A DNA stretch of 64,000 nt from the NCBI GenBank assembly GCA_902364065.1, contig CABJCJ010000010.1, forward strand, positions 14,873-78,872, given 5' to 3'. The notes beneath the pieces are model-generated. The model searched no databases, had not been told where the DNA came from, and saw only the letters and a list, made by a program, of their open reading frames with translations. The stretch is from Veillonellaceae bacterium SB90. Lineage in GTDB: Bacteria > Bacillota > Negativicutes > Selenomonadales > Selenomonadaceae. The translations under genes and the position numbers were made by a program. Below are positions 7,923 to 27,977 of this stretch, in pieces (position 1 is the first letter of the stretch; the number at the start of each line of letters is the position of its first letter).

Positions 7923-8828
7923 ATGGAACAGAACACGAAACACAAATCCGGCTTTGTCGCCGTCATCGGCCGCCCGAACGTCGGCAAATCGACGCTCATC
8001 AACACCCTGATCGGTCAGAAGATCGCCATCATGAGCGATAAGCCACAGACCACGCAGAACCGCATCCTCTGCATTCTCACGGAACCCGATGCCCAGATCA
8101 TCTTCCTCGACACGCCGGGCATCCACAAGCCGAAGCACAAGCTCGGCGAGTACATGGTCAAGGCCGCTGAAGGCACGCTGAAGGAAGTCGATGCCATCCT
8201 GTTCGTCGTCGATGCGACGGAGAAGATGGGCCCGGGTGAATACTACATCCTCGAACGCCTGCAGGCCACCTGCAAGCCGGTCATCCTTGTCGTCAACAAG
8301 CTCGACCTCATCGAGAAGGAACAGGCGCTGCCCATCATCTCGCGCTATACGGAGAAATATCCGTTCGTCGGCGTTGTGCCAATCTCGGCCAAGACGGAAC
8401 TCAATCTTGATGCCCTGCTGACCGAAGTCAAGAAATACCTGCCGGAGGGGCCGCAGTATTATCCGGAGGACATGATAACGGACCAGCCGGAGCGCCTGAT
8501 CGTGGCTGAGCTCGTCCGCGAGAAGGTCCTGCAGCTCACGCGCGACGAAGTGCCGCATGCCGTCGCCGTGGAAACGGATGAGATGACCACGCGCGAGAAC
8601 GGCGATGTCTACATCCGCGCGACCATCTACGTGGAGCGCGATTCCCAGAAGGGCATCATCATCGGCGCCAAGGGCGCCATGCTCAAGGAAATCGGCCGGC
8701 TGGCCCGCACGGACATCGAGGCGCTGCTCGGCTCCCGCGTCTTCCTCGAGCTCTGGGTCAAGGTCAAGAAGGACTGGCGCAACCGCGAGGGCGTGCTGCA
8801 TAACTTCGGATTTGGAGTGGAATCCTGA
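7923..8828 (+). CDS. era: GTPase Era
   Basis: 301 residues from ATG 7923; an in-frame start at 7899 lies within ybeY and lacks a ribosome site. G1 is GRPNVGKST (residues about 15-23), G2 is around TTQNR, G3 is DTPGIHKPKH, G4 is NKLD, and a C-terminal KH RNA-binding domain has the IIGAKGAMLKEIG loop near residue 245. Era binds the 3' end of 16S rRNA and checks 30S maturation, matching its neighbours phoH and ybeY. The stop overlaps the next start (TGATG). Confidence 0.97.
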   Translation: MEQNTKHKSGFVAVIGRPNVGKSTLINTLIGQKIAIMSDKPQTTQNRILCILTEPDAQIIFLDTPGIHKPKHKLGEYMVKAAEGTLKEVDAILFVVDATEKMGPGEYYILERLQATCKPVILVVNKLDLIEKEQALPIISRYTEKYPFVGVVPISAKTELNLDALLTEVKKYLPEGPQYYPEDMITDQPERLIVAELVREKVLQLTRDEVPHAVAVETDEMTTRENGDVYIRATIYVERDSQKGIIIGAKGAMLKEIGRLARTDIEALLGSRVFLELWVKVKKDWRNREGVLHNFGFGVES

Positions 8829-12835: not shown

Positions 12836-15800
12836 TTGTACAGCAAAGTAGATACCAATCTGAATTTCGTTGCACGCGAAAGAGAAATTGCGAAGTTCTG
12901 GAAGGAACACAACATCGCACAGAAAGCCATTGACCAGCGCGAGGGATGCGACACCTTCACGTTTTACGACGGCCCGCCGACGGCAAACGGCAAGCCGCAC
13001 ATCGGCCATGTGCTGACGCGCGTCATCAAGGACATGCTGCCGCGCTTCCAGTCCATGAAGGGCAAGAAGGTCCTGCGCAAGGCCGGCTGGGATACGCACG
13101 GCCTGCCCGTTGAGCTCGAGGTTGAGAAAGCCATCGGCATCAACGGCAAGGAGCAGATCGAGAAGTACGGCATCGAGCCGTTCATCAAGAAATGCCGCGA
13201 ATCCGTCTGGAAATACAAGGGCATGTGGGAGCAGTTCTCCGAGGTCGTCGGCTTCTGGGCCGATATGGATCATCCGTACATCACGTACGAGAACAACTTC
13301 ATCGAGTCCGAGTGGTGGGCGCTCAAGGAAATCTGGAACAAGGGCCTGCTCTATGAAGGCTACAAGGTCGTTCCGTACTGCCCGCGCTGCGGCACTCCGC
13401 TTTCCTCGCACGAGGTGGCACAGGGCTACAAGGATGTCACGGAGCGTTCGGCCATGGTCAAGTTCAAGGTCAAGGGCGAAGATGCTTACTTCCTGGCCTG
13501 GACGACGACGCCGTGGACGCTGCCGTCGAACCTTGCGCTCTGCGTCAATCCGGAAGTCGATTACGTCAAGGTGCGCGTGAACGGCACGGTCTACATCCTC
13601 GCTGAAGCTCTCGTCGATACGGTCTTTGATGGTGTTGAGGGCGAGCGCGAAGTCCTTGGCAAATGCAAGGGCAAGGAGCTCGAGTACAAAGAGTACGAGC
13701 CGCTCTATCCGTTTGCCAACGCTGCCGTGGAAAAACAGGCGAAAGCCGGCAAGAAAGCCTTCATCGTCACGTGCGATGATTACGTCACGACGGAAGACGG
13801 CACGGGCATTGTCCACATGGCTCCGGCCTTCGGTGAAGACGATAACCGCGTCTGCCGCAACTACAACGTCGCATTCGTCAATCTCGTCAACAGCAAGGGT
13901 GAGCTGACGGCAGAGACGGCCTGGCCGGGCGTCTTCGTCAAGAAGGCCGACCCCATGATCCTCGATGACCTCAAGCAGCAGGGCAAGCTCTTCAAGGCGC
14001 CGGAATTCACGCACAGCTATCCGCATTGCTGGCGTTGCGATACGCCGCTGCTTTACTACTCGTTCCCGACCTGGTTCATCAAGATGACGGCGGTCAAGGA
14101 CGAGCTCGTGGCCAACAACAAGACGGTAAACTGGATCCCGAAATCCATCGGCGAGGGCCGCTTCGGCAACTGGCTCGAGCACGTGCAGGACTGGGGCCTC
14201 TCGCGCAACCGTTACTGGGGCACGCCGCTGCCGGTATGGCAGTGCGAATGCGGCCATCAGCATGTCATCGGCTCCATCGCAGAGCTCAAGAGCCTCAGTG
14301 ACAACTGCCCCGATGATATCGAGCTGCATCGCCCGTACATCGACAAGGTCACGATCAAGTGCCCGGACTGCGGCCAGGAGATGCATCGCGTGCCGGAAGT
14401 CATCGACTGCTGGTTCGATTCCGGCTCCATGCCGTTCGCGCAGTGGCACTATCCGTTTGAGAACAAGGAAATCTTTGCCAAGCGCTTCCCGGCGGACTTC
14501 ATCTCCGAAGCCGTCGATCAGACGCGCGGCTGGTTCTATTCGCTGATCGCCATCTCGACGCTGCTCTTCCACAAGGCTCCGTACAAGAATGTCATCGTGC
14601 TCGGCCATGTCCAGGATAAGGATGGCCGCAAGATGTCGAAGTCGAAGGGCAATGCCGTCGATCCGATGGAGGCGCTCAACAAGCATGGCGCCGATGCCAT
14701 CCGCTGGTACTTCTATGAGAACAGCGCGCCGTGGCTGCCGAACCGCTTCCACGACGATGCCGTGCAGGAAGGCCAGCGCAAGTTCATGGGCACTCTCTGG
14801 AATACGTATGCGTTCTTCGTACTTTACGCCAACATTGACAACTTCGATGCGACGAAGTACACGCTCGACTATGACAAACTGCCGGTCATGGACAAGTGGT
14901 GCCTCTCGCGCCTCAATACGATGGTCAAGGATGTCGATTACGACCTCTCGAACTACCGCGTCACGGAAGCCGCGAAGGCACTTGAGCAGTTCGTCGATGA
15001 ACTCTCGAACTGGTATGTTCGCCGCAGCCGCAGCCGCTTCTGGGCCAAGGGCATGGAGCAGGATAAGATCAATGCCTATATGACGCTTTACACGGCGCTC
15101 GTGACGACGGTGAAGGCCGCTGCGCCGATGATCCCGTTCATGACGGAATCCATTTACCGCAACCTCGTCTGCAGCATCGACAAGCAGGCGCCGGAATCCG
15201 TCCACCTCTGCGATTTCCCGCAGGTCAACGAAGCGCACATCGATAAGGAACTCGAGAAGAACATGGGCGAGGTCCTTGAGATCGTCGTGCTCGGCCGTGC
15301 AGCCCGCAACGAGGCGAATATCAAGAACCGCCAGCCAATCGGCAATATGTATGTCAAGGCTCCGGTCGTCCTGCCGGACTTCTACAAGCAGATTGTTGAG
15401 GAAGAGCTCAACGTCAAGCAGGTCGTCTTCAAGGATGATATGGAAGCGTACCTCACGTACAGCTTCAAGCCGCAGTTCCGCGTGCTCGGCCCGAAGGTCG
15501 GCAAGAAGATGGGCGCCATCCAGAAGGCACTCAAAGCCGTCAACGGCCACAAGGCCAAGGAAGAACTCGACACGACGGGCAAACTCGTCATCTCGCTGCC
15601 GGACGGCGACGTGACGTTGCTGCCGGAAGATGTCGAAGTCTCCATGGCACAGACGGAAGGCTACAACTGCCAGCGCTACAACGGCGTGACGATTGCCCTC
15701 GAGACGACGCTTTCCGAGGAACTCCTCGAGGAAGGCTTCGTGCGCGAGATCATCAGCAAGATCCAGACGATGCGCAAGGAAAACGGCTATGAGGTCACCG

Positions 15801-17271: not shown

Positions 17272-17585
17272 TTGCCAAATGTATATGGTTGTGCTATTCT
17301 AGTATCCAACACAGGGAAATGCAGTGACGAAGAATAGTACACATCCTGTACATCGCAAGAGAGTTGCCGTCTGGTGCGAGGCAATGGTGAAGGGATGAGG
17401 AACTCGCTTCGAAGCAGTCCACTGAACACCCGCGCTTCGGGCACGAGCTATTAGGCTGGAACGGGACTGACCGTTACATCAGGGGGATTTGGCAGAATCC
17501 CGCAGAGATGCTCCTTGCGAGCATGAATTTGAGTGGTAACACGCAGGCACAGGCCTTCGTCTCATGGACGGAGGCCTTTTTCTAT
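17272..17585 (+). promoter_or_regulatory. T-box leader of leuA (leucine, CTC specifier)
   Basis: TTGCCA (17272-17277), 17 bases and TATTCT (17295-17300) form the promoter. Stem I includes AGTA near 17335, the distal AGAGAGTTGCC and GGTGCGAGGCAA segments, and the specifier region GAGGAA-CTC-GCTTCGAAGCAG with CTC at 17403-17405 (leucine). The T-box sequence GAGTGGTAACACG lies at 17531-17543. The terminator AGGCCTTCGTC/GGACGGAGGCCT with a T run lies at 17551-17584. Low charged tRNA-Leu should favour readthrough into leuA. Confidence 0.92.
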
Positions 17586-20567: not shown

Positions 20568-22076
20568 GTGTTGAACGAAGAGCGGGCGGATATGGGCTTT
20601 GCGGCCTTGAAGGAATTGCGGGCCAAAAGCCCTGCCTGGCGGCTGCTGGCGGCAGAACACGGGCCGCTGGCCGCGGCCTTCTTTTATGAGGTCTTTCTGC
20701 AAAAGAGAACGCGGGCTTTGCCCGAGGAGAAGCTGCTCGATGCGCTGACCAGCTTCCTTTATGAGACGGGAGCCGCGGGAAATACGGCGGAACTTGCGCG
20801 GCAGGCCGGCAGCCTGCTTCTGAGCTGGTCGGACGAGCAGCACCGCTGGCTGCGGCGCTTCTATGGCCCCGATAACGAAGTGCTCTACGATCTGACATCT
20901 GATGCCCAGAAAGCCGTGGAATGGCTCGCAGGACTTCATCATCGCCCGTTCATCGGCACGGAATCGCGCCTGCGCACGGTCTTCTCGCTGCTGCATGAGG
21001 TGGAGCGCGAGACGGACCGGGATCCGCAGCACCGCATGGACTGGCTGCGCCGGCAGAAGGATGCCATCGAGCGGGAGATGGCGGCGATTGAGGCGAGCGG
21101 CAGAGTGGAGCCTGCGCTCAGCGCTGTCCAGGTCAAGGAGCGCTTCCTGCAGGCCGTGCAGACATCTGAGGGCCTGCTCGCCGATTTTCGCGAGGTCGAG
21201 GAGAATTTCCGCCTGCTCGAGCACCGGCTCATGACGGACGTCATGACCTGGAAACAGGGCAAGGGCGATCTGCTCGAGGAGATCTTTGTGCAGCGCGATG
21301 TCATCCGTCAGTCAGAGCAGGGGCAGAGTTTTGAGGCGTTCTGGCGCTTCCTCATGACGGGATTCAAGCAGGAGGATTTCCGCGCAACTCTTGCCCATCT
21401 CGAGGAGGTGCCGGAGCTCCGCCCGATGCTCAAGGAACATCCGCTCGGCGAGATGATGCAGGACTGGCTGCGCGCGGCGGCTGCCGTGGAGCAGACGGTG
21501 GGGGCGCTTGACAAGCAGATTCGCCGCTTCGTCGATGAACACACTCTGCAGGAGGAGCGGTATATCTATGAGCTCATCGGCCGCATCGAGCAGCGGGCGG
21601 CAAAGCTTCCGGAGGTGCCGAACGGCCCGTTCACGGCCATCGACGGCATGGCGCCTTCCATCTCCCTGCCGATGGACCGGCGCATGTTCGTCCTGCCGAA
21701 GCGCACGCGGCTGCGCGATCAGGATCTCATCGAGGGGGTGGCCGATGGCCCCGTGACGGCACTGCTGCGGGAACGCCCGATTGACCGCCGGCGCCTGCAG
21801 GCGCAGATTGACGGCATGCTGGAGCAGCAGGAAACGGTGACGCTCGGCGAGGTGATCCGCTCCCATCCGCTCGAGCAGGGACTGGGCGAACTGCTCGCCT
21901 ATCTCGTCATCGCGAGCCGCCGCGAAGGCAGCGAGGTGCGGGAGGACGAGTGGCAGGACATCCTCTACTGCAGGGACGGCCAGGAGGTGGCTGCGCGCTG
22001 CGAGACGATTGTCTTTCACCGGAAACGACCGGATGGCCGCCATCATCATGCCGCAAGGAAAGGAGAACACGCTTAA
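20568..22076 (+). CDS. jetA: JetA/MksF, kleisin-like subunit of Wadjet/MksBEF SMC complex (DUF3375)
   Basis: About 502 residues from GTG 20568 (TTG 20571 is the alternative; GGGAGGG lies 4-8 bases upstream). The longer reading would run through the SDR gene. The protein is helical and charged, with a DUF3375-like N-terminus (FAALKELRAKSPAWRLLAAEHGPLAA), a winged-helix-rich N-terminal half, long helices around residues 140-230 and a C-terminal winged-helix-like part. In Wadjet/Mks systems this subunit bridges the SMC heads as a kleisin. Its stop overlaps the jetB start (TAATG). TATAAT at 20505-20510 is the likely -10. Confidence 0.87.
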   Translation: MLNEERADMGFAALKELRAKSPAWRLLAAEHGPLAAAFFYEVFLQKRTRALPEEKLLDALTSFLYETGAAGNTAELARQAGSLLLSWSDEQHRWLRRFYGPDNEVLYDLTSDAQKAVEWLAGLHHRPFIGTESRLRTVFSLLHEVERETDRDPQHRMDWLRRQKDAIEREMAAIEASGRVEPALSAVQVKERFLQAVQTSEGLLADFREVEENFRLLEHRLMTDVMTWKQGKGDLLEEIFVQRDVIRQSEQGQSFEAFWRFLMTGFKQEDFRATLAHLEEVPELRPMLKEHPLGEMMQDWLRAAAAVEQTVGALDKQIRRFVDEHTLQEERYIYELIGRIEQRAAKLPEVPNGPFTAIDGMAPSISLPMDRRMFVLPKRTRLRDQDLIEGVADGPVTALLRERPIDRRRLQAQIDGMLEQQETVTLGEVIRSHPLEQGLGELLAYLVIASRREGSEVREDEWQDILYCRDGQEVAARCETIVFHRKRPDGRHHHAARKGEHA

Positions 22077-22762
22077 TGGGAATCGAAAATCGGGATGACA
22101 GGACGGTCTGGGAAGATACGGAACCGGAAGCTGGCGTGACTTCGTCGGGAGAAGCCGCGTTTTCTTCCGACAAAGAACAGGCAGACGATGCCGCTCCGTT
22201 CGCGCGCGCGGCCATTGCGCTCCTGCGCGGCGTCGTCTTTCGCGACAAGGATGAGGCGCTCTGGCAGACGGTCTGGAAAGAACGCGTGCGGCTCATGGAT
22301 TACTTCCGCGTCATCGGCCTGCAGCTCTACGTCGATGAAGCCGATGAATACGCCTATCTGCGCCAGGACGAATCCTCGGGGCTGCCGCGCATCATGCCGC
22401 GTCATCCGCTGGGCTTCAGCCTCAGCATGATGCTCGTGACGCTGCGGAAGAAACTCGGAGAATTCGATGCAGCCCGCGGCGATGCGCGCCTCATCGTGAC
22501 GCGCGACGATCTGGAACTCTCGCTGCGCCCATATTTCCCGCCCGTGACGAATGAGACACAGTTCCTCATGCGCGTCGACCGCGACATCCAGCAGGCCGTG
22601 CAGATGGGCTTTCTCGAGCCGGTTGGGGCGGAGGCGGCCTATGCCGTGCGCCCGCTCCTGCGCAGCTTCGTGACGGCGGAATGGCTGCGTGATTTTGAGG
22701 CGCGCCTCAAGGAATACGAGGCATACGGTCAGCAGGACGGTGGAGAGGAGGCCGGAAAATGA
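22076..22762 (+). CDS. jetB: JetB/MksE, KITE-like subunit (DUF4194)
   Basis: 228 residues, DUF4194. After an acidic, low-complexity N-terminus of about 35 residues comes a winged-helix region (FARAAIALLRGVVFRDKDEALWQTV) and the family-typical LGLQLYVDEADEYAYLRQ-like segment (seen as IGLQLYVDEADEYAYL near residue 80), then RHPLGFSLSMMLVTLRKKL. MksE/JetB dimers bind the JetA kleisin. AAGGAG precedes the ATG, which overlaps the jetA stop; the jetB stop overlaps jetC (ATGA). The three genes are therefore translationally coupled. Confidence 0.88.
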   Translation: MGIENRDDRTVWEDTEPEAGVTSSGEAAFSSDKEQADDAAPFARAAIALLRGVVFRDKDEALWQTVWKERVRLMDYFRVIGLQLYVDEADEYAYLRQDESSGLPRIMPRHPLGFSLSMMLVTLRKKLGEFDAARGDARLIVTRDDLELSLRPYFPPVTNETQFLMRVDRDIQQAVQMGFLEPVGAEAAYAVRPLLRSFVTAEWLRDFEARLKEYEAYGQQDGGEEAGK

Positions 22763-25700
22763 ATTTATTTGATACGACGGGCGAGCTTCCGAAGCTCGGC
22801 TACCGCCTGCAGCGGCTCGAGGTCTATAACTGGGGAACGTTCGACCAGCGCGTCTGGTCGTTTGAACTCGGCGGCGAGGCCGCACTGCTCACGGGCGATG
22901 TCGGCTCCGGCAAGTCGACGCTCGTCGATGCCATACTGACGCTGCTCGTGCCGCCGCGCAAAGTCACGTACAACAAGGCGGCCGACGCCGATGCGCGCGA
23001 ACGCGACCTCGCGAGCTACGTGCTCGGCTATTATGCGCAGCGCCGGACCGAGGACGGCGGCGGACGCCCGCTGGCCCTGCGCGACCGCAGCCAGTACAGC
23101 GTCATCCTCGGGATTTTTGCCGATGAGAATTTCGGCAAGACGATGACACTCGCGCAGGTCTTCTGGTTCCGCGATGAGAGCATCCGCTATCCGAGCCGTT
23201 TCTACGTGGCAGCCAATAAGGAGCTCCATATCTGCGATGCGTTCAGCAAGATTGGCCCGGATATGCGCCGCTTCAAGAAGGAGCTTTCCTCGCAGGAAGG
23301 CCTCGAGGTCTTCGATGACTATCCGGCCTATGCGCGCGTCTTTCGGCGCGCGTTCGGCCTCCATCAGGAACAGGCCATGGAGCTCTTCCAGCAGACCGTC
23401 TCGATGAAGAAGGTCGATTCGCTGACGGACTTCGTGCGCCAGAGCATGCTCGATGTGCCGGATACGGATGCTTATGTCGAGAACCTGCTGCACCATTACC
23501 ACGACCTGGAGGCGGCGCATCAGTCTGTCCTGCAGGCGCGGAGCCAGCAGGAGCTCTTGAAGCCCCTTGTTGAGGACGGCATGGTCTACCGCCGCCTCCA
23601 GCGCCGCCGTCAGGAACTCATCGACATGCGCGAGGTGCTGCCGGCCTGGCTCGCGGGCATGGCCTGCGAGGCTCTCTCGAAGAAGGCGGAAAGCCTGCAG
23701 CAGGAACAGGCCGCGCGCCAGCGGGAATTTGAGGACGAGCAGCGGCGTCAGGAGGCGCTTGAACAGGAATTCCTGACGGCAAGCCAGGCCCTTGTCCAGC
23801 ATGGCGGGCAGCGCCTCAGCGAACTCGTCGGCAGGATCAGGCTGGCGGAAGCAGCCCTCGCCGCGCGCGAGGAGGCTGCCGCCAAGTATGGCGAGGCCCT
23901 TTCGTCTGCTGGCGTGACCGGCTGCCGTCTCCCGCAGAGCCTGGAGGAATTCGCGGAAAACCGGGAGAAAATCACTGCCTTGCGTCAGGCTGCCGAGCAG
24001 CGCCTCGACGAGATCGGCGACGAGCGCGCCGCGGCCCGCAGCAACGAGGCGGAGATGAAGAAGCGTGCGGAAACGCTCGCGACGGAGCTGACCTCTCTGC
24101 GCGGCCGTCAGTCGAACATCCCGCACGAGTACGTCAGGCTGCGCGAGCAGCTGGCGGAAAGCCTGAACCTCGCGCCGAGTGAGATGCCGTTTGTCGGCGA
24201 GCTCCTGGAGGTCCGCGAGGATGAACAGGAATGGGAAGGGGCGCTCGAGCGCCTGCTGCACAGCTTCGGCCTCTCGCTCATCGTGCCGCAGACGCATTAC
24301 GGCGAAGTGGCCAACTGGCTCGAGCGCCATCCGCTGCACCTGAAGCTCGTCTACTACTGCGTCGATGAGCTCGTGCAGGAAAACTTGCCGGAGGTTCCTC
24401 AAGATGCAGCCTGCAGCAAGCTGAACCTTCGCGAAGATTCCCCGTATGCGAATTGGCTGCAGGCGGAGCTTGCGCGCCGCTTTGCCCATACATGTGTCGA
24501 GGAAATGAAGGAGTTCCGCCATGCGCGCTTCGCGTTGACAAAAGCAGGCCAGATCAAGACGGGCGGCCGCCGTCACGAGAAGGACGACCGCCGCGATATC
24601 GGCGACCGCAGCCGCTACATCCTGGGCTTCTCGAATCAGCGCAAGGTCCAGGCACTCGAAGCGGAGCAGCTCGACCTGCAGGAGGAGGAACGCTACTTCC
24701 ATCAGGCGGCTCAGAAACTCAAGCGGGAAGAAAGGGACATCCAAGGAAAACTGCGCCAGTTTGACCGGCTCACGGCCGTGACGGCCTTTGGCGCAATTGA
24801 TACGGAACCGCTGCGAAAATCCCTCGCCGCCCTGCGCGAGGAACGCCGGCAGCTCGAACAGGGCAATGAGGATTACCGCCTGCAGCAGCAGCGCGTGCAG
24901 GACTTGCAGGAACGCCGCGCGGCTCAGCAGAAGAAGATGTATCTTCTGCGCGATGCCCTGACGCGCGGTGCGCAGAGCCTGCAGGACCTTTCCGGGCGCA
25001 TGCAGGCGGCAAAGGCCAGTCGAGATGCCGTCCCCAGCGCGAAGTGGCAGGCAATCTCACCGCTCCTTGAGCGCGACCGGCCGGACAAAAGCGGCGGTGC
25101 ACAGTCTGGCAGGGATCTGCGTACGGCGTATGAAGCCTGGCTGAAGAAGCATCTGGAACGCGCGGATGAGGAGCTTGCCGCGCGCAGCAGACGCATGGTC
25201 AGCCAGATGGCGCTGTTCCGGGAACGCTATCCGCAGGCAGGGCGTGACCTTGCCGTCACGCCGGAAGCCCTGCGCGATTACGAAGCCATCCTCGAGCGAT
25301 TGCAGGCAGATGATCTGCCGCGCTTCGAGAGCCGTTTCCGCGCCCTGCTGCGGGAAAACACCATCAAGCAGATGACGCTCTTCCGGGCGCATCTTGAGGC
25401 AGCGGCCCGCGATATCGAGGAGCGCATTGCGCGCATCAACACCTCGCTTTACGACATCGACTACAATCCCGGACGCTACATCCAGATGGAATGCGTGCAG
25501 GCGGCTGACGAGCGCGTGCGTTCCTTCCGCATGGACCTGGCGGCCTGCACGGACGCAGAGTCAGAGCAGCCGGACGAGGCTGCTGCCTATGGCGAGCAGC
25601 AGTTCCAGAAGGTGTCGGCCATGGTACAGCGCCTCGAGGGGTGTCCCGGCCACACGGGCGAAGATCTTGCCTGGCGCCGTCACGTCACCGACGTGCGCAA

Positions 25701-26142
25701 CTGGTTTGCCTTTGCAGCGGCCGAGCACTGGCGTGAGGATGACAGTGAATACGAGCATTACACGGATTCGGGCGGCAAGTCCGGCGGGCAGAAGGAAAAG
25801 CTCGCCTACACGATCCTCGCGGCCAGCATCGTCTACAACTTCGGCATCGAGGGCAAGCATGCGGGCGAGCAGTCCTTCCGTTTCGTCGCCATCGATGAGG
25901 CCTTCCTCAAGAGTTCGGATGAGGCGGCGGCCTTTGGACTCGAGCTCTTCCGCAAGCTGGACCTCCAGCTGCTCGTTGTGACGCCTCTCCTGAAGCTTGC
26001 GACCATCGAGCCGTATGTGCGCCATGTGGGTTTCGTCTATTTCCATGACGATGAGCATCGTTCGTATCTGCAGAATCTCTCCATCGAGGAGCTGCGTGCG
26101 CAGCAGGATGATCCACAGCCAGCGAACAATAACGACGAATGA
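22759..26142 (+). CDS. jetC: JetC/MksB, SMC-like ATPase of Wadjet/Mks complex
   Basis: 1127 residues. Walker A GDVGSGKST is at residues 46-54, preceded by LEVYNWGTFDQ, the start typical of SbcC/MukB-like heads in this family. Two long coiled-coil arms rich in Glu/Arg/Gln run from about 280 to 460 and 640 to 900, around a short hinge. The ABC signature SGGKSGGQKEKL begins at about 1004, Walker B VAIDEAF has Asp1046/Glu1047, and the distal LLVVTPLLKL follows. It is the ATP-driven loop-extrusion motor of MksBEF/JetABC. A terminator begins only four bases after the stop, and the next gene is convergent, so no jetD follows. Confidence 0.95.
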   Translation: MNLFDTTGELPKLGYRLQRLEVYNWGTFDQRVWSFELGGEAALLTGDVGSGKSTLVDAILTLLVPPRKVTYNKAADADARERDLASYVLGYYAQRRTEDGGGRPLALRDRSQYSVILGIFADENFGKTMTLAQVFWFRDESIRYPSRFYVAANKELHICDAFSKIGPDMRRFKKELSSQEGLEVFDDYPAYARVFRRAFGLHQEQAMELFQQTVSMKKVDSLTDFVRQSMLDVPDTDAYVENLLHHYHDLEAAHQSVLQARSQQELLKPLVEDGMVYRRLQRRRQELIDMREVLPAWLAGMACEALSKKAESLQQEQAARQREFEDEQRRQEALEQEFLTASQALVQHGGQRLSELVGRIRLAEAALAAREEAAAKYGEALSSAGVTGCRLPQSLEEFAENREKITALRQAAEQRLDEIGDERAAARSNEAEMKKRAETLATELTSLRGRQSNIPHEYVRLREQLAESLNLAPSEMPFVGELLEVREDEQEWEGALERLLHSFGLSLIVPQTHYGEVANWLERHPLHLKLVYYCVDELVQENLPEVPQDAACSKLNLREDSPYANWLQAELARRFAHTCVEEMKEFRHARFALTKAGQIKTGGRRHEKDDRRDIGDRSRYILGFSNQRKVQALEAEQLDLQEEERYFHQAAQKLKREERDIQGKLRQFDRLTAVTAFGAIDTEPLRKSLAALREERRQLEQGNEDYRLQQQRVQDLQERRAAQQKKMYLLRDALTRGAQSLQDLSGRMQAAKASRDAVPSAKWQAISPLLERDRPDKSGGAQSGRDLRTAYEAWLKKHLERADEELAARSRRMVSQMALFRERYPQAGRDLAVTPEALRDYEAILERLQADDLPRFESRFRALLRENTIKQMTLFRAHLEAAARDIEERIARINTSLYDIDYNPGRYIQMECVQAADERVRSFRMDLAACTDAESEQPDEAAAYGEQQFQKVSAMVQRLEGCPGHTGEDLAWRRHVTDVRNWFAFAAAEHWREDDSEYEHYTDSGGKSGGQKEKLAYTILAASIVYNFGIEGKHAGEQSFRFVAIDEAFLKSSDEAAAFGLELFRKLDLQLLVVTPLLKLATIEPYVRHVGFVYFHDDEHRSYLQNLSIEELRAQQDDPQPANNNDE

Positions 26143-26145
26143 TAA

Positions 26146-26192
26146 AAAATCCCGCTCCTGGGAACATGTCCTGGGAAGCGGGATTTTTACAT
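26146..26192. terminator. Bidirectional terminator after jetC
   Basis: AAAAATCCCGCT pairs with AGCGGGATTTTT, with inner CCTGGGA repeats. It starts four bases after the jetC stop and lies between convergent jetC and the glucosidase gene, so it physically ends the jet operon. Confidence 0.88.
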
Positions 26193-26212: not shown

Positions 26213-27895
26213 TTATTTATCGGTGAGCACGACACGCGCTTCGTAAGGCTGCAGAATGCCAGCTTTATGGCTCGGGTAATTCGAGATGAGTTCCTCGCCC
26301 GGATTTTCGTCAAAGAGGCTGCAGGGAACCTCGTGCTCCGTCCAGTTGCAGGCGACTGTCAGGCGCTTGCCGTCGAGCTCGCGCGCGAAGGCGTAAATCG
26401 TCTCACTGTCCTCGAGCAGCGGCTCGAAGGTGCCATAGACGATGATGGGATGTGCATGGCGCAGCCGGATGAGCTTCTGGTAGTAGTAGAAGGTGGAATC
26501 CGGGTCCTTGAGCGCGGCTTCGGCGTTGATTTCCGTGTAGTTGGGGTTGACGGCGAGCCAGGGCTTGCCCGTCGTGAAGCCGGCGTTGGCACTTGCATCC
26601 CACTGCATCGGCGTGCGCGCGTTGTCGCGGGCCATGGTGTCGAAGCACTGGAGCATCGTCTCGGCCGATACCTTCTTCTGTTCGTCGACATACTGGTGCC
26701 AGGCGTTGATTTCCTCGAGATCCTGGCAGTCTGCGAGCGAGTGGAATTTCGTGTTCGTCATGCCGAGTTCCTCGCCCTGATAGATGTACGGCGTGCCCTT
26801 CTGCATGTGCAGGCAGGTCGCGAGCATCTTGGCGGAGAGCACGCGCCACTCGGGGCTGTCGTTGCCGAACGTCGAGACGCAGCGCGGCTGATCGTGATTG
26901 TCGAGATAGAGTGAGTTCCAGGCTTTGCCATCAAGCTCCCGCTGCCATTTGTTGAGGATGGCGCGGACCTTCGGCATCTGCGGCTTGCCCGTCGTCCACT
27001 TGTCGATAATGCTGCCCTTGCCGTTCTCCGGGCCGACATGCTCGAACTGGAAGACCATGCCGAGCTCTTTACCATCGCTGCGCGCGTACTTCTTGGCTTC
27101 ATCAATCGTGACGCCGGCAGCTTCGCCGACGGTCAGCAGATCGTAATGGGAAAGTACGCGGCGATTCATTTCCTGCAGGTATTCATGGACGCGCGGCCCA
27201 TTGCAGACGTGCGGCGAAAGGTCGCCGTAGCCGTCCGCCTTGACGGGGCCGTCCGGGAAGGACTGGTCCTTCGAGATCATCGAGATGACATCCATGCGGA
27301 AGCCGTCGATGCCCTTCTCGCACCACCAGGTCATCATGTCGAAGACGGCATCGCGGACCTTGGGGTTCTCCCAGTTGAGGTCGGGCTGTTTCTTCGAGAA
27401 GCAGTGCAGGTAATACTGATCCGTGGCCTCATCGTACTGCCAGGCCGGGCCGCTGAAGTATGACTCCCAGTTGTTCGGTGCGCCGCCGTTCCTGCCATCT
27501 TTCCAGATGTAGAAATCCCGGTACGGATTCTCGCGGGACTTGCGGCTCTCGACGAACCAGGCATGTTCATCGGACGTATGGTTGACGACGAGATCCATGA
27601 CGATCTTGATGCCGGCCTCGTGTGCCGTCTTGAGCAAGGTGTCGAAATCCGCCATCGTGCCGAAATCGTCCATGATGGCCCGGTAATCGGAGATGTCATA
27701 GCCGTTGTCGTCATTCGGGGACCGATAAATCGGGGAGAGCCAGATGACGTCGACCCCGAGTTTCCGGAGATAGGGGATGCGTTGCGTGATGCCCGGCAAA
27801 TCGCCGATGCCATCGCCGTTGGAATCCTGGAAACTGCGCGGATAGATCTGATAGATGACGGCCTCTTTCCACCAGGCCTTCTGTTCATTTGCCAT
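26213..27895 (-). CDS. GH13 alpha-glucosidase, predicted oligo-1,6-glucosidase
   Basis: 560 residues from ATG 27895 (GGAGG upstream). GH13 regions are complete: VMDLVVNHTSDEH, GIDGFRMDVI (nucleophile Asp), VGEAAGVT (acid/base Glu) and YLDNHDQPR. The residue after the nucleophile is Val, which in this subfamily goes with alpha-1,6 (isomaltose, panose, dextran-oligosaccharide) specificity; maltases have Thr. The calcium-type DSNGDGIGDL loop is near residue 22. No signal peptide, so it acts in the cytoplasm on imported oligosaccharides. Trehalose-6-phosphate hydrolase is a less likely alternative. It stands alone with no transporter beside it. Confidence 0.9.
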   Translation of the reverse strand: MANEQKAWWKEAVIYQIYPRSFQDSNGDGIGDLPGITQRIPYLRKLGVDVIWLSPIYRSPNDDNGYDISDYRAIMDDFGTMADFDTLLKTAHEAGIKIVMDLVVNHTSDEHAWFVESRKSRENPYRDFYIWKDGRNGGAPNNWESYFSGPAWQYDEATDQYYLHCFSKKQPDLNWENPKVRDAVFDMMTWWCEKGIDGFRMDVISMISKDQSFPDGPVKADGYGDLSPHVCNGPRVHEYLQEMNRRVLSHYDLLTVGEAAGVTIDEAKKYARSDGKELGMVFQFEHVGPENGKGSIIDKWTTGKPQMPKVRAILNKWQRELDGKAWNSLYLDNHDQPRCVSTFGNDSPEWRVLSAKMLATCLHMQKGTPYIYQGEELGMTNTKFHSLADCQDLEEINAWHQYVDEQKKVSAETMLQCFDTMARDNARTPMQWDASANAGFTTGKPWLAVNPNYTEINAEAALKDPDSTFYYYQKLIRLRHAHPIIVYGTFEPLLEDSETIYAFARELDGKRLTVACNWTEHEVPCSLFDENPGEELISNYPSHKAGILQPYEARVVLTDK

Positions 27896-27977
27896 AAAAA
27901 AACCTCCTGCCAAATCTTGATGTTTCTTATTTCGTTCCTTCCAGCGGTGATTCCTACCCGAAACCGGTACAAAAAAT

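What the first reader, a model, noticed from the sequence alone, without database searches (positions are those of the whole stretch)
20568..26142. Complete JetA-JetB-JetC (MksFEB) operon without the JetD nuclease
Three translationally coupled genes encode the DUF3375 kleisin, the DUF4194 KITE protein and the 1127-residue SMC ATPase with intact Walker A (G46-T54), signature and Walker B (D1046/E1047). Known Wadjet anti-plasmid loci carry a fourth gene, jetD (TOPRIM-type nuclease), next to these. Here a terminator starts four bases after jetC and a convergent glucosidase follows; upstream is a divergent SDR gene, and no jetD-like gene is seen in the 64 kb. The complex may act as a condensin only (MksBEF), or use a nuclease encoded in trans or of another family.
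Basis: partly seen in the sequence, partly recalled or inferred. Interest (0 to 1): 0.75.

Follow-up and report, generated by a model that had tools for sequence, protein, structure and literature searches.

The report
Plasmid-defence SMC complex lacking its nuclease
A bacterial DNA-looping machine normally paired with a plasmid-cutting enzyme is kept intact here without that enzyme, and its relatives show the enzyme moved elsewhere in the genome, broken or gone, so this family may show a defence system turning into something else.

Summary
Confirmed: window 20568-26142 holds intact, overlapping type I Wadjet jetA, jetB and jetC, closed by a strong terminator, with no JetD-like sequence in the 64 kb. 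This is not one odd contig. The nearest genome (JetC 88%) has the same jetD-less locus. Of 31 Selenomonadaceae-type genomes with full-length JetC, none shows jetD beside jetC (one has only 264 bases there). Nine have an intact jetD elsewhere, at about five sites, tracking JetC (Mantel r 0.93) and sister to the cis jetD of Veillonellaceae. Two have a remnant with the same ~0.7 kb deletion; twenty show no trace. The window lies in an 8-row group without jetD. JetC motifs are intact and dN/dS stays low (0.04-0.13 in 7 of 8 jetD-less pairs), so JetABC probably keeps a nuclease-independent job, likely MksBEF-like loop extrusion beside SMC-ScpAB. Against: JetC is patchy (25 of 101 family genomes). 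The window's genome is not held, so jetD in trans is not excluded. A conserved jetD-less Wadjet I is already reported in Stenotrophomonas maltophilia, there called probably inactive; the graded series cis, trans, remnant, none is the new part.

The parts
20568..22076 (+). jetA (mksF-like kleisin, DUF3375), 502 aa, GTG start
   Evidence: Pfam PF11855 366.5 bits; PADLOC JetA1 1.1e-142; 83% identical to L001; dN/dS 0.118 against L001
22076..22762 (+). jetB (KITE, DUF4194/MksE), 228 aa; overlaps the jetA stop by 1 base (TAATG)
   Evidence: Pfam PF13835 118.4 bits; PADLOC JetB1 3.1e-56; overlap read from sequence; dN/dS 0.126
22759..26142 (+). jetC (mksB-like SMC ATPase), 1127 aa; overlaps the jetB stop by 4 bases (ATGA)
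   Evidence: PADLOC JetC1 1259.7 bits; solved JetC chains matched at 1.7e-70; Walker A G46-T54, signature region 1004-1013, Walker B D1046/E1047; dN/dS 0.084
26145..26188 (+). strong intrinsic terminator between jetC and the convergent glucosidase; symmetric, so it could serve both strands (inference)
   Evidence: -28.3 kcal/mol, z -5.33
   Evidence: open frame
26213..27913 (-). convergent alpha-amylase family glucosidase, unrelated neighbour; also downstream of jetC in L001
   Evidence: Pfam PF00128 573.6 bits; cluster 29 in WIN and L001

Best explanation
This is the motor part (kleisin, KITE, SMC ATPase) of a type I Wadjet system from which the nuclease JetD has been uncoupled and, in this lineage, most likely lost. 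JetABC would still load on DNA, dimerise through the kleisin and extrude loops using ATP, but would not cut plasmids. It would act like MksBEF, an accessory condensin on chromosome (and perhaps resident plasmid) DNA beside SMC-ScpAB. Shown here: intact genes and ATPase motifs, purifying selection, no jetD in the window or in the nearest genome, and repeated absence or breakage of jetD in related JetABC carriers. Inferred: loop extrusion, no plasmid cleavage, loss rather than later gain of jetD, and any chromosomal role.
For: No JetD in the window or in the nearest genome G001. None of 31 related genomes shows jetD after jetC (bases held after jetC listed), and 22 of 31 have no intact jetD by Pfam JetD_C or by a 16-sequence JetD profile that in the same call scores 338 and 381 bits on JetD of two genomes of other phyla. 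Two of the 22 carry remnants with the same internal deletion beside intact jetABC. The jetD-less label needs at least 7 changes on well-supported branches. Walker A, SGG and Walker B are present in 32 of 32 rows of this clade (31 genomes and the window). jetC dN/dS is 0.038-0.246 in 8 jetD-less pairs (median 0.08), 0.084 for window/L001, against 0.012-0.087 for four neighbouring genes of that pair. Positions conserved in other phyla are lost at similar rates in jetD-less and jetD-bearing rows for JetC and JetB. Dependence is one-way: 12 of 12 genomes with strong JetD in the class sample have strong JetC, while 18 of 30 with strong JetC lack strong JetD (counted). ScpA is found in 29 of 31, G001 included. 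A review says that P. [quoted passage not shown]
Against: JetC is patchy: 25 close full-length copies (27 genomes with any match) among 101 family genomes, 1 of 3 in the genus, more like an accessory or defence trait than a core condensin. jetD-less pairs show somewhat higher dN/dS than the three trans pairs (0.043-0.051), with one clear outlier, L107/L113, at 0.25-0.52. JetA of the window's group has lost slightly more otherwise conserved positions (0.38-0.41) than the trans rows (0.34). The window's genome is not held; G001 is a MAG of unstated completeness. The C. glutamicum complex, which has MksG, does not organise the chromosome (PMC7083940, passages). Authors of a Stenotrophomonas study call the jetD-less Wadjet I there probably inactive (PMC11680222, passages). 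No functional data exist for this lineage.
Confidence: 0.5

Rival explanations
1. A complete Wadjet system whose jetD is encoded in trans elsewhere in the window's own genome, as in Selenomonas ruminantium relatives.
For: Nine of 31 relatives have an intact jetD away from jetABC, with the invariant acidic residues kept; the trans JetDs are monophyletic (100/98) and branch with the Veillonellaceae cis JetDs, with JetC-JetD distance correlation r 0.93, p 0.0002 over the nine. The window's genome cannot be searched.
Against: The 8 rows of the window's group in the JetC tree (95; 94/86) are the window and seven genomes, and the JetD profile finds nothing in the seven. G001's two congeners G080 and G051, which lack JetC, have none either.
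Confidence: 0.15
2. JetABC works with a different nuclease or effector encoded elsewhere, for example the ~370 aa TOPRIM proteins with weak JetD_C/DUF2399 similarity.
For: These occur in 7 of 25 JetC-bearing and 7 of 74 JetC-lacking family genomes (counts; Fisher p 0.04; G114 and G058 dropped), including three of the seven genomes grouped with the window (G066, G113, G121). By eye they carry VENK-like and GDxD-like motifs.
Against: Absent from G001 and from 18 of 25 JetC-bearing genomes; the association is weak and uncorrected for kinship; one copy (G110) has two stops. No gene is conserved beside jetC across lineages.
Confidence: 0.1
3. JetABC hinders plasmids without cutting them, by loop extrusion that silences, sequesters or mis-segregates small circles.
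For: Would fit a patchy, defence-like distribution together with purifying selection.
Against: [quoted passage not shown] subtilis (PMC10586767, passages); [quoted passage not shown] glutamicum (PMC10123090, passages).
Confidence: 0.13
4. A decaying leftover: JetABC is no longer useful and has simply not yet been lost. This is close to the published view of the jetD-less Wadjet I of S. maltophilia ('probably inactive').
For: Patchy presence; L107/L113 dN/dS 0.25-0.52; insertions between jetB and jetC in one clade; relic of jetC-jetD in G058; published view for S. maltophilia (PMC11680222, passages).
Against: Open frames and motifs intact in nearly all rows; window/L001 dN/dS 0.08-0.13 at dS about 0.86. 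The S. maltophilia form is itself reported as conserved.
Confidence: 0.12

Closest known systems
Wadjet type I (JetABCD / MksBEFG / EptABCD)
   Same: JetA, JetB and JetC families, gene order A-B-C, overlapping genes, ATPase motifs; solved JetA and JetC chains are the nearest structures by sequence
   Different: No JetD next to JetC, in the window, or in the nearest genome
jetD-less Wadjet I of Stenotrophomonas maltophilia (incomplete Wadjet I, defence island 27)
   Same: jetA, jetB and jetC of type I without jetD, conserved across strains (PMC11680222, passages)
   Different: There judged probably inactive, in a defence island with RecBCD. Here another phylum, a locus without other defence genes next to it (by eye), dN/dS and motif evidence for retained function, and relatives with jetD in trans or as remnant. 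The two were not aligned
MksBEF of Pseudomonas aeruginosa (condensin without nuclease)
   Same: Three-subunit complex with no nuclease subunit, beside SMC-ScpAB (ScpA found in relatives); JetB also matches Pfam MksE
   Different: By sequence the window is type I JetABC, nested among cis-JetD Wadjet in the tree, so its loss of JetD looks independent. P. aeruginosa PAO1 MksBEF itself was not aligned here
Borrelia burgdorferi MksB
   Same: An Mks-type SMC in a genome without the usual partners that shapes chromosome contacts (PMC10406323, passages)
   Different: Borrelia lacks MksE and MksF too; here kleisin and KITE are intact

Membership tests
Wadjet type I | DUF3375 kleisin JetA | tested here: met
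   366.5 bits, PADLOC JetA1
Wadjet type I | DUF4194 KITE JetB | tested here: met
   118.4 bits, PADLOC JetB1
Wadjet type I | JetC SMC ATPase with Walker A, signature, Walker B | tested here: met
   PADLOC JetC1; GDVGSGKST, SGGKSGGQKE, FVAIDEA
Wadjet type I | JetD nuclease (DUF3322 + JetD_C) in the same operon | tested here: not met
   No JetD-like sequence in 64 kb; terminator directly after jetC
Wadjet type I | JetD anywhere in the genome | not testable with these tools
   Window genome not held; not found in nearest relative G001, a MAG
Wadjet type I | Restricts small circular plasmids by cleavage | not testable with these tools
   Needs an experiment
MksBEF-type accessory condensin | Kleisin, KITE and SMC without nuclease, beside SMC-ScpAB | tested here: inconclusive
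   Met in G001 (JetABC, no JetD found, ScpA present); the window genome itself untested
MksBEF-type accessory condensin | Contributes to chromosome organisation or segregation | not testable with these tools
   Needs Hi-C or segregation assays; patchy distribution argues against a core role

The most novel reading that the evidence does not exclude
Selenomonadaceae are caught converting an anti-plasmid machine into a nuclease-free DNA organiser: jetD first left the jetABC operon, then became optional, and was lost some seven to nine times, while JetABC stayed under selection for a separate function. The family would offer natural cis (in sister families), trans, remnant and none states of one system, and would support an origin of MksBEF-like condensins from Wadjet.
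Probability: 0.4. Interest if true: 0.75.

Novelty: new variant of a known kind. Interest (0 to 1): 0.55.

Why it matters
Whether JetABC does anything without JetD, and whether MksBEF-type condensins come from Wadjet, are open questions; [quoted passage not shown] A jetD-less Wadjet I was called probably inactive in S. maltophilia (PMC11680222, passages). Here related bacteria carry the same JetABC with JetD in trans, as a remnant, or absent, and Veillonellaceae relatives have it in cis, so inactivity and a nuclease-free role can be told apart by comparison. It also warns that defence finders which call Wadjet from JetABC, or discard it when JetD is not adjacent, will err in this family in one direction or the other.

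Tried and rejected
1. IFDR motif at the JetB N-terminus (said to contact JetD, PMC10586767 passage) as a test of nuclease coupling: by eye no such motif in the JetB starts of cis-JetD relatives printed, so it is not a usable test. 2. Search for JetD-dependent positions: of columns at least 90% conserved in cis and trans rows, 7 of 90 (JetA), 1 of 33 (JetB) and 7 of 260 (JetC) are lost in at least 40% of the deep jetD-less rows; the reverse test (conserved in cis and jetD-less rows, lost in trans) gave 0 of 71, 1 of 29 and 1 of 249, but the trans rows are fewer and closer to each other. JetB D200 (T or N in deep jetD-less rows, D in all trans and recent-loss rows, N also in cis G165/G178) and JetC R534 (kept in some deep jetD-less rows) are leads only, picked after the fact, without a significance test. 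3. Clearly faster erosion of conserved positions in jetD-less rows: not found. 4. A conserved fourth gene beside jetC: none across lineages. 5. JetABC on a plasmid: 17 plasmid records match JetC, all under 60% identity; none of the organisms shown is a Selenomonas, two records and the names of two organisms were not listed. GC3 of jetABC (0.74-0.79) is like that of six other genes of the window (0.69-0.81). 6. Pfam PF11796 was a wrong accession for the JetD N-terminus (it is DUF3323; DUF3322 is PF11795); its negative result is not used. 7. One neighbour frame (cluster 28, dN/dS 1.43) is probably not a real gene and was dropped as baseline; jetB L108/L111 (1.05) comes from an L108 JetB whose end does not align.
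Full report
Observation. The three genes exist as described, with the given coordinates, overlaps and motifs. PADLOC assigns all three to Wadjet type I. A strong hairpin follows jetC (z -5.33), and a convergent glucosidase is next. A JetD profile built from 16 JetD proteins (alignment A1) finds nothing in the six frames of the window (best E 3). GC3 of jetABC is like that of other genes of the window, so the genes are not recent arrivals by this measure.

Where it is from. No whole genome is held for the window. The single scan of genome contigs with JetC gave 42 loci. The nearest is L001 (Selenomonadaceae MAG SUG1706, handle G001): JetC 88%, JetA 83%, JetB 79%, with the same glucosidase downstream and the same leuA-like gene (name by eye) upstream. 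The next are Selenomonas at about 50-52%.

JetD in other loci. Of the 42 genomes behind that scan, 37 have a JetD_C match over the Pfam cut-off. Six of the 42 loci belong to the Selenomonas group. Of the other 36, 31 have a JetD match downstream of JetC on the locus; L008, L029, L034, L036 and L037 do not. L034 and L036 end inside jetC. L029 and L037 (Saprospiraceae MAGs) have only 1.4 and 1.0 kb after jetC, and JetD was not found in their genomes. In L008 (Azonexus) jetD lies about 42 kb away on what must be the same contig (same length), and the 20 kb around it hold no second jetABC.

JetD in the window's own clade. Two samples were drawn around G001: 101 genomes of its family (JetC, JetD_C) and 300 of its class (in one search at most two candidates per genome were scored). 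The tool names no groups; 'Selenomonadaceae-type' rests on the record titles of G001-G004, G022 and G042 and on the JetC tree. Full-length JetC of this clade is found in 31 different genomes (25, six more). Not counted: G351 (JetC cut by a contig end; no JetD on its 6.6 kb contig), G058 (relic) and G114, a family genome with a divergent JetC (23%) that has JetD directly after it. In none of the 31 is JetD found after jetC on the fetched locus. The bases held after jetC are at least 4.8 kb in 29, 2.3 kb in G134 and only 264 in G128. Nine of 31 carry an intact jetD elsewhere: G003, G004, G022, G042, G110 (35 kb away on the same contig), G111, G275, G286, G305. By contrast the four other class genomes with strong JetC (G165, G178, G039 Dialister, G337) have jetD directly after jetC. 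The remaining 22 were searched again with the A1 profile: 20 have nothing, and G002 and G119 have fragments. In the same call the profile scored 338 and 381 bits on JetD of two genomes of other phyla, so the search is not blind. Some of the 22 (G065, G066, G089, G113, G121) gave weak JetD_C hits of 20-26 bits; these belong to another TOPRIM family.

The trans jetD genes. One (L043) was tested by Pfam and has both JetD domains; the others align over their length and keep the invariant EN, GDxD and R-EQE residues. Acidic residues of the JetD TOPRIM and its E-x-E pair are discussed for MksG/JetD in PMC10123090 (passages). They sit at about five unrelated sites: one shared by G003, G004, G022 and G286, and others in G111/G275, G305/G099, G042 and G110. 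The ten trans JetDs (nine plus G099, which has no JetC) are monophyletic (100/98), and they and the two Veillonellaceae-type cis JetDs (G039, G337) are parted from all other rows at 100/100. The JetDs of G165 and G178 fall among the outgroup rows, whereas their JetCs are basal in the class clade; this is compatible with, but does not add to, co-inheritance. JetC and JetD distances correlate over the nine genomes (Mantel r 0.93, p 0.0002). The simplest reading is that jetD left the operon and was inherited with JetABC.

Remnants. In G002 and G119 the jetD site carries only the start and end of the gene. Both lack the same stretch of about 700 bases that holds the TOPRIM core, with one and the same breakpoint; G002 lacks a further ~100 bases. 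JetABC is intact in both. The remnant regions are 97.6% identical over 553 bases (91.5% over another 458) although the JetC of these genomes are not sisters, so the broken allele may have spread by recombination. A third relic, in G058, has pieces of jetC directly followed by a piece of jetD, as expected if the cis order was once present there.

Tree. In the careful tree of 40 JetC rows (36 of the class, 4 outgroup) the window and L001 are a pair (100/100) inside an 8-row group without JetD (94/86; 95 by SH-aLRT in the 70-row quick tree). A second jetD-less group has 6 rows, a third 2; the 16-row Selenomonas group is 9 trans and 7 none. The jetD-less label needs 8 changes, at least 7 forced by well-supported branches. 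If jetD cannot be regained, I count nine losses by eye, eight if the shared deletion is one event. Regain in the Selenomonas group is not formally excluded.

Is JetABC still working? Walker A, SGG and Walker B are present in 32 of 32 rows of the clade. jetA and jetB are found with full length beside jetC in most; jetA and part of jetB of G134 and part of jetA of G121 are beyond contig ends, and in G112 jetAB lie about 10.5 kb from jetC. The G066 JetC hit was flagged with one stop, but a 1102-codon frame is found. Pairwise dN/dS (NG86, 15 pairs): jetC 0.038-0.246 for eight jetD-less pairs (median 0.08), 0.043-0.051 for three trans pairs, 0.044-0.071 for four mixed pairs. The window/L001 pair gives 0.118, 0.126 and 0.084 for jetA, jetB and jetC at dS near 0.86; four neighbouring genes of the same pair give 0.012 to 0.087. 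So constraint is strong but slightly weaker than with JetD, and clearly relaxed in one pair (L107/L113, 0.25-0.52). Positions conserved across other phyla are lost at similar rates in jetD-less, trans and cis rows for JetB and JetC; for JetA the window's group is slightly higher (0.38-0.41 against 0.34 in trans rows and 0.22-0.40 in cis rows of the class).

One-way dependence. In the class sample all 12 genomes with JetD_C over 120 bits also have JetC over 800 bits, while 18 of the 30 genomes with such JetC lack such JetD (counted from the tables). In the family sample 4 of 25 JetC genomes and 1 of 74 others (G099) have JetD over 120 bits (G114 and G058 dropped; Fisher p 0.014). The nuclease goes with the motor; the motor does without the nuclease. 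These counts ignore kinship.

Other partners. Genes after jetC are alike within subclades but differ between them; of these a chemotaxis receptor and a riboflavin kinase were named by Pfam. A family of ~370 aa TOPRIM proteins with weak JetD_C similarity is in 14 of 101 family genomes, 7 of them with JetC, not in G001. ScpA, the kleisin of SMC-ScpAB, is in 29 of 31 genomes; the two without (G045, G074) are the smallest assemblies.

Reading. The best-supported view is a motor complex that outlived its nuclease and keeps a separate job; the known precedent is MksBEF of P. aeruginosa (PMC10586767, passages; PMC7485682, start of abstract and passages). The strongest point against a housekeeping condensin is that JetC is found in only about a quarter of family genomes and one of three of the genus. 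The job may therefore be conditional, or still directed at plasmids without cutting. The function is inferred, not shown.

Literature. I made six searches of the held library and saw passages, not whole texts, of PMC10123090, PMC10586767, PMC7083940, PMC10512200, PMC10406323, PMC12287153, PMC7485682 and PMC11680222. A jetD-less Wadjet I is in print: in S. maltophilia it is the more frequent variant, conserved, and called probably inactive (PMC11680222). [quoted passage not shown] In these listings and passages I saw no report of jetD in trans, nor of jetD-less JetABC in Selenomonadaceae; the library lacks most subscription papers.

Noticed in passing
L049 about 14450-14757 (G002) and L144 about 8082-8548 (G119): Two Selenomonas-group genomes share the same internal deletion of a trans jetD, with 97.6% identical DNA over 553 bases there although their JetC are not sisters: a null allele that may spread by recombination.
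   Followed up: partly
L147 3596-4079 (G058): Relic in which fragments of jetC are directly followed by a fragment of jetD, a decayed cis arrangement in a genome of the same family.
   Followed up: partly
L114, L117, L115/L146 (G120, G062, G112): Insertions of about 2, 3 and 10.5 kb split jetB from jetC while the genes stay open.
   Followed up: partly
L090 1228-2340 and relatives: A family of ~370 aa TOPRIM proteins with weak JetD_C/DUF2399 similarity, in 14 of 101 family genomes, of unknown function.
   Followed up: partly
L008 and L145 (Azonexus G008): Outside this class, another type I Wadjet with jetD about 42 kb from jetABC and jetB split from jetC by about 3 kb.
   Followed up: partly
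window 17315-17567 and 2291-2448: T-box leader upstream of the leuA-like gene, and a glmS ribozyme, both above Rfam gathering scores.
   Followed up: no
L107 and L113 (G090, G128): jetABC of this pair shows higher dN/dS (0.25-0.52) than other pairs, apart from one misaligned jetB pair; possibly decay under way.
   Followed up: no
window JetB residue 200 and JetC residue 534: Positions nearly invariant where JetD exists but changed in most old jetD-less lineages; candidate contacts with JetD, found post hoc.
   Followed up: partly
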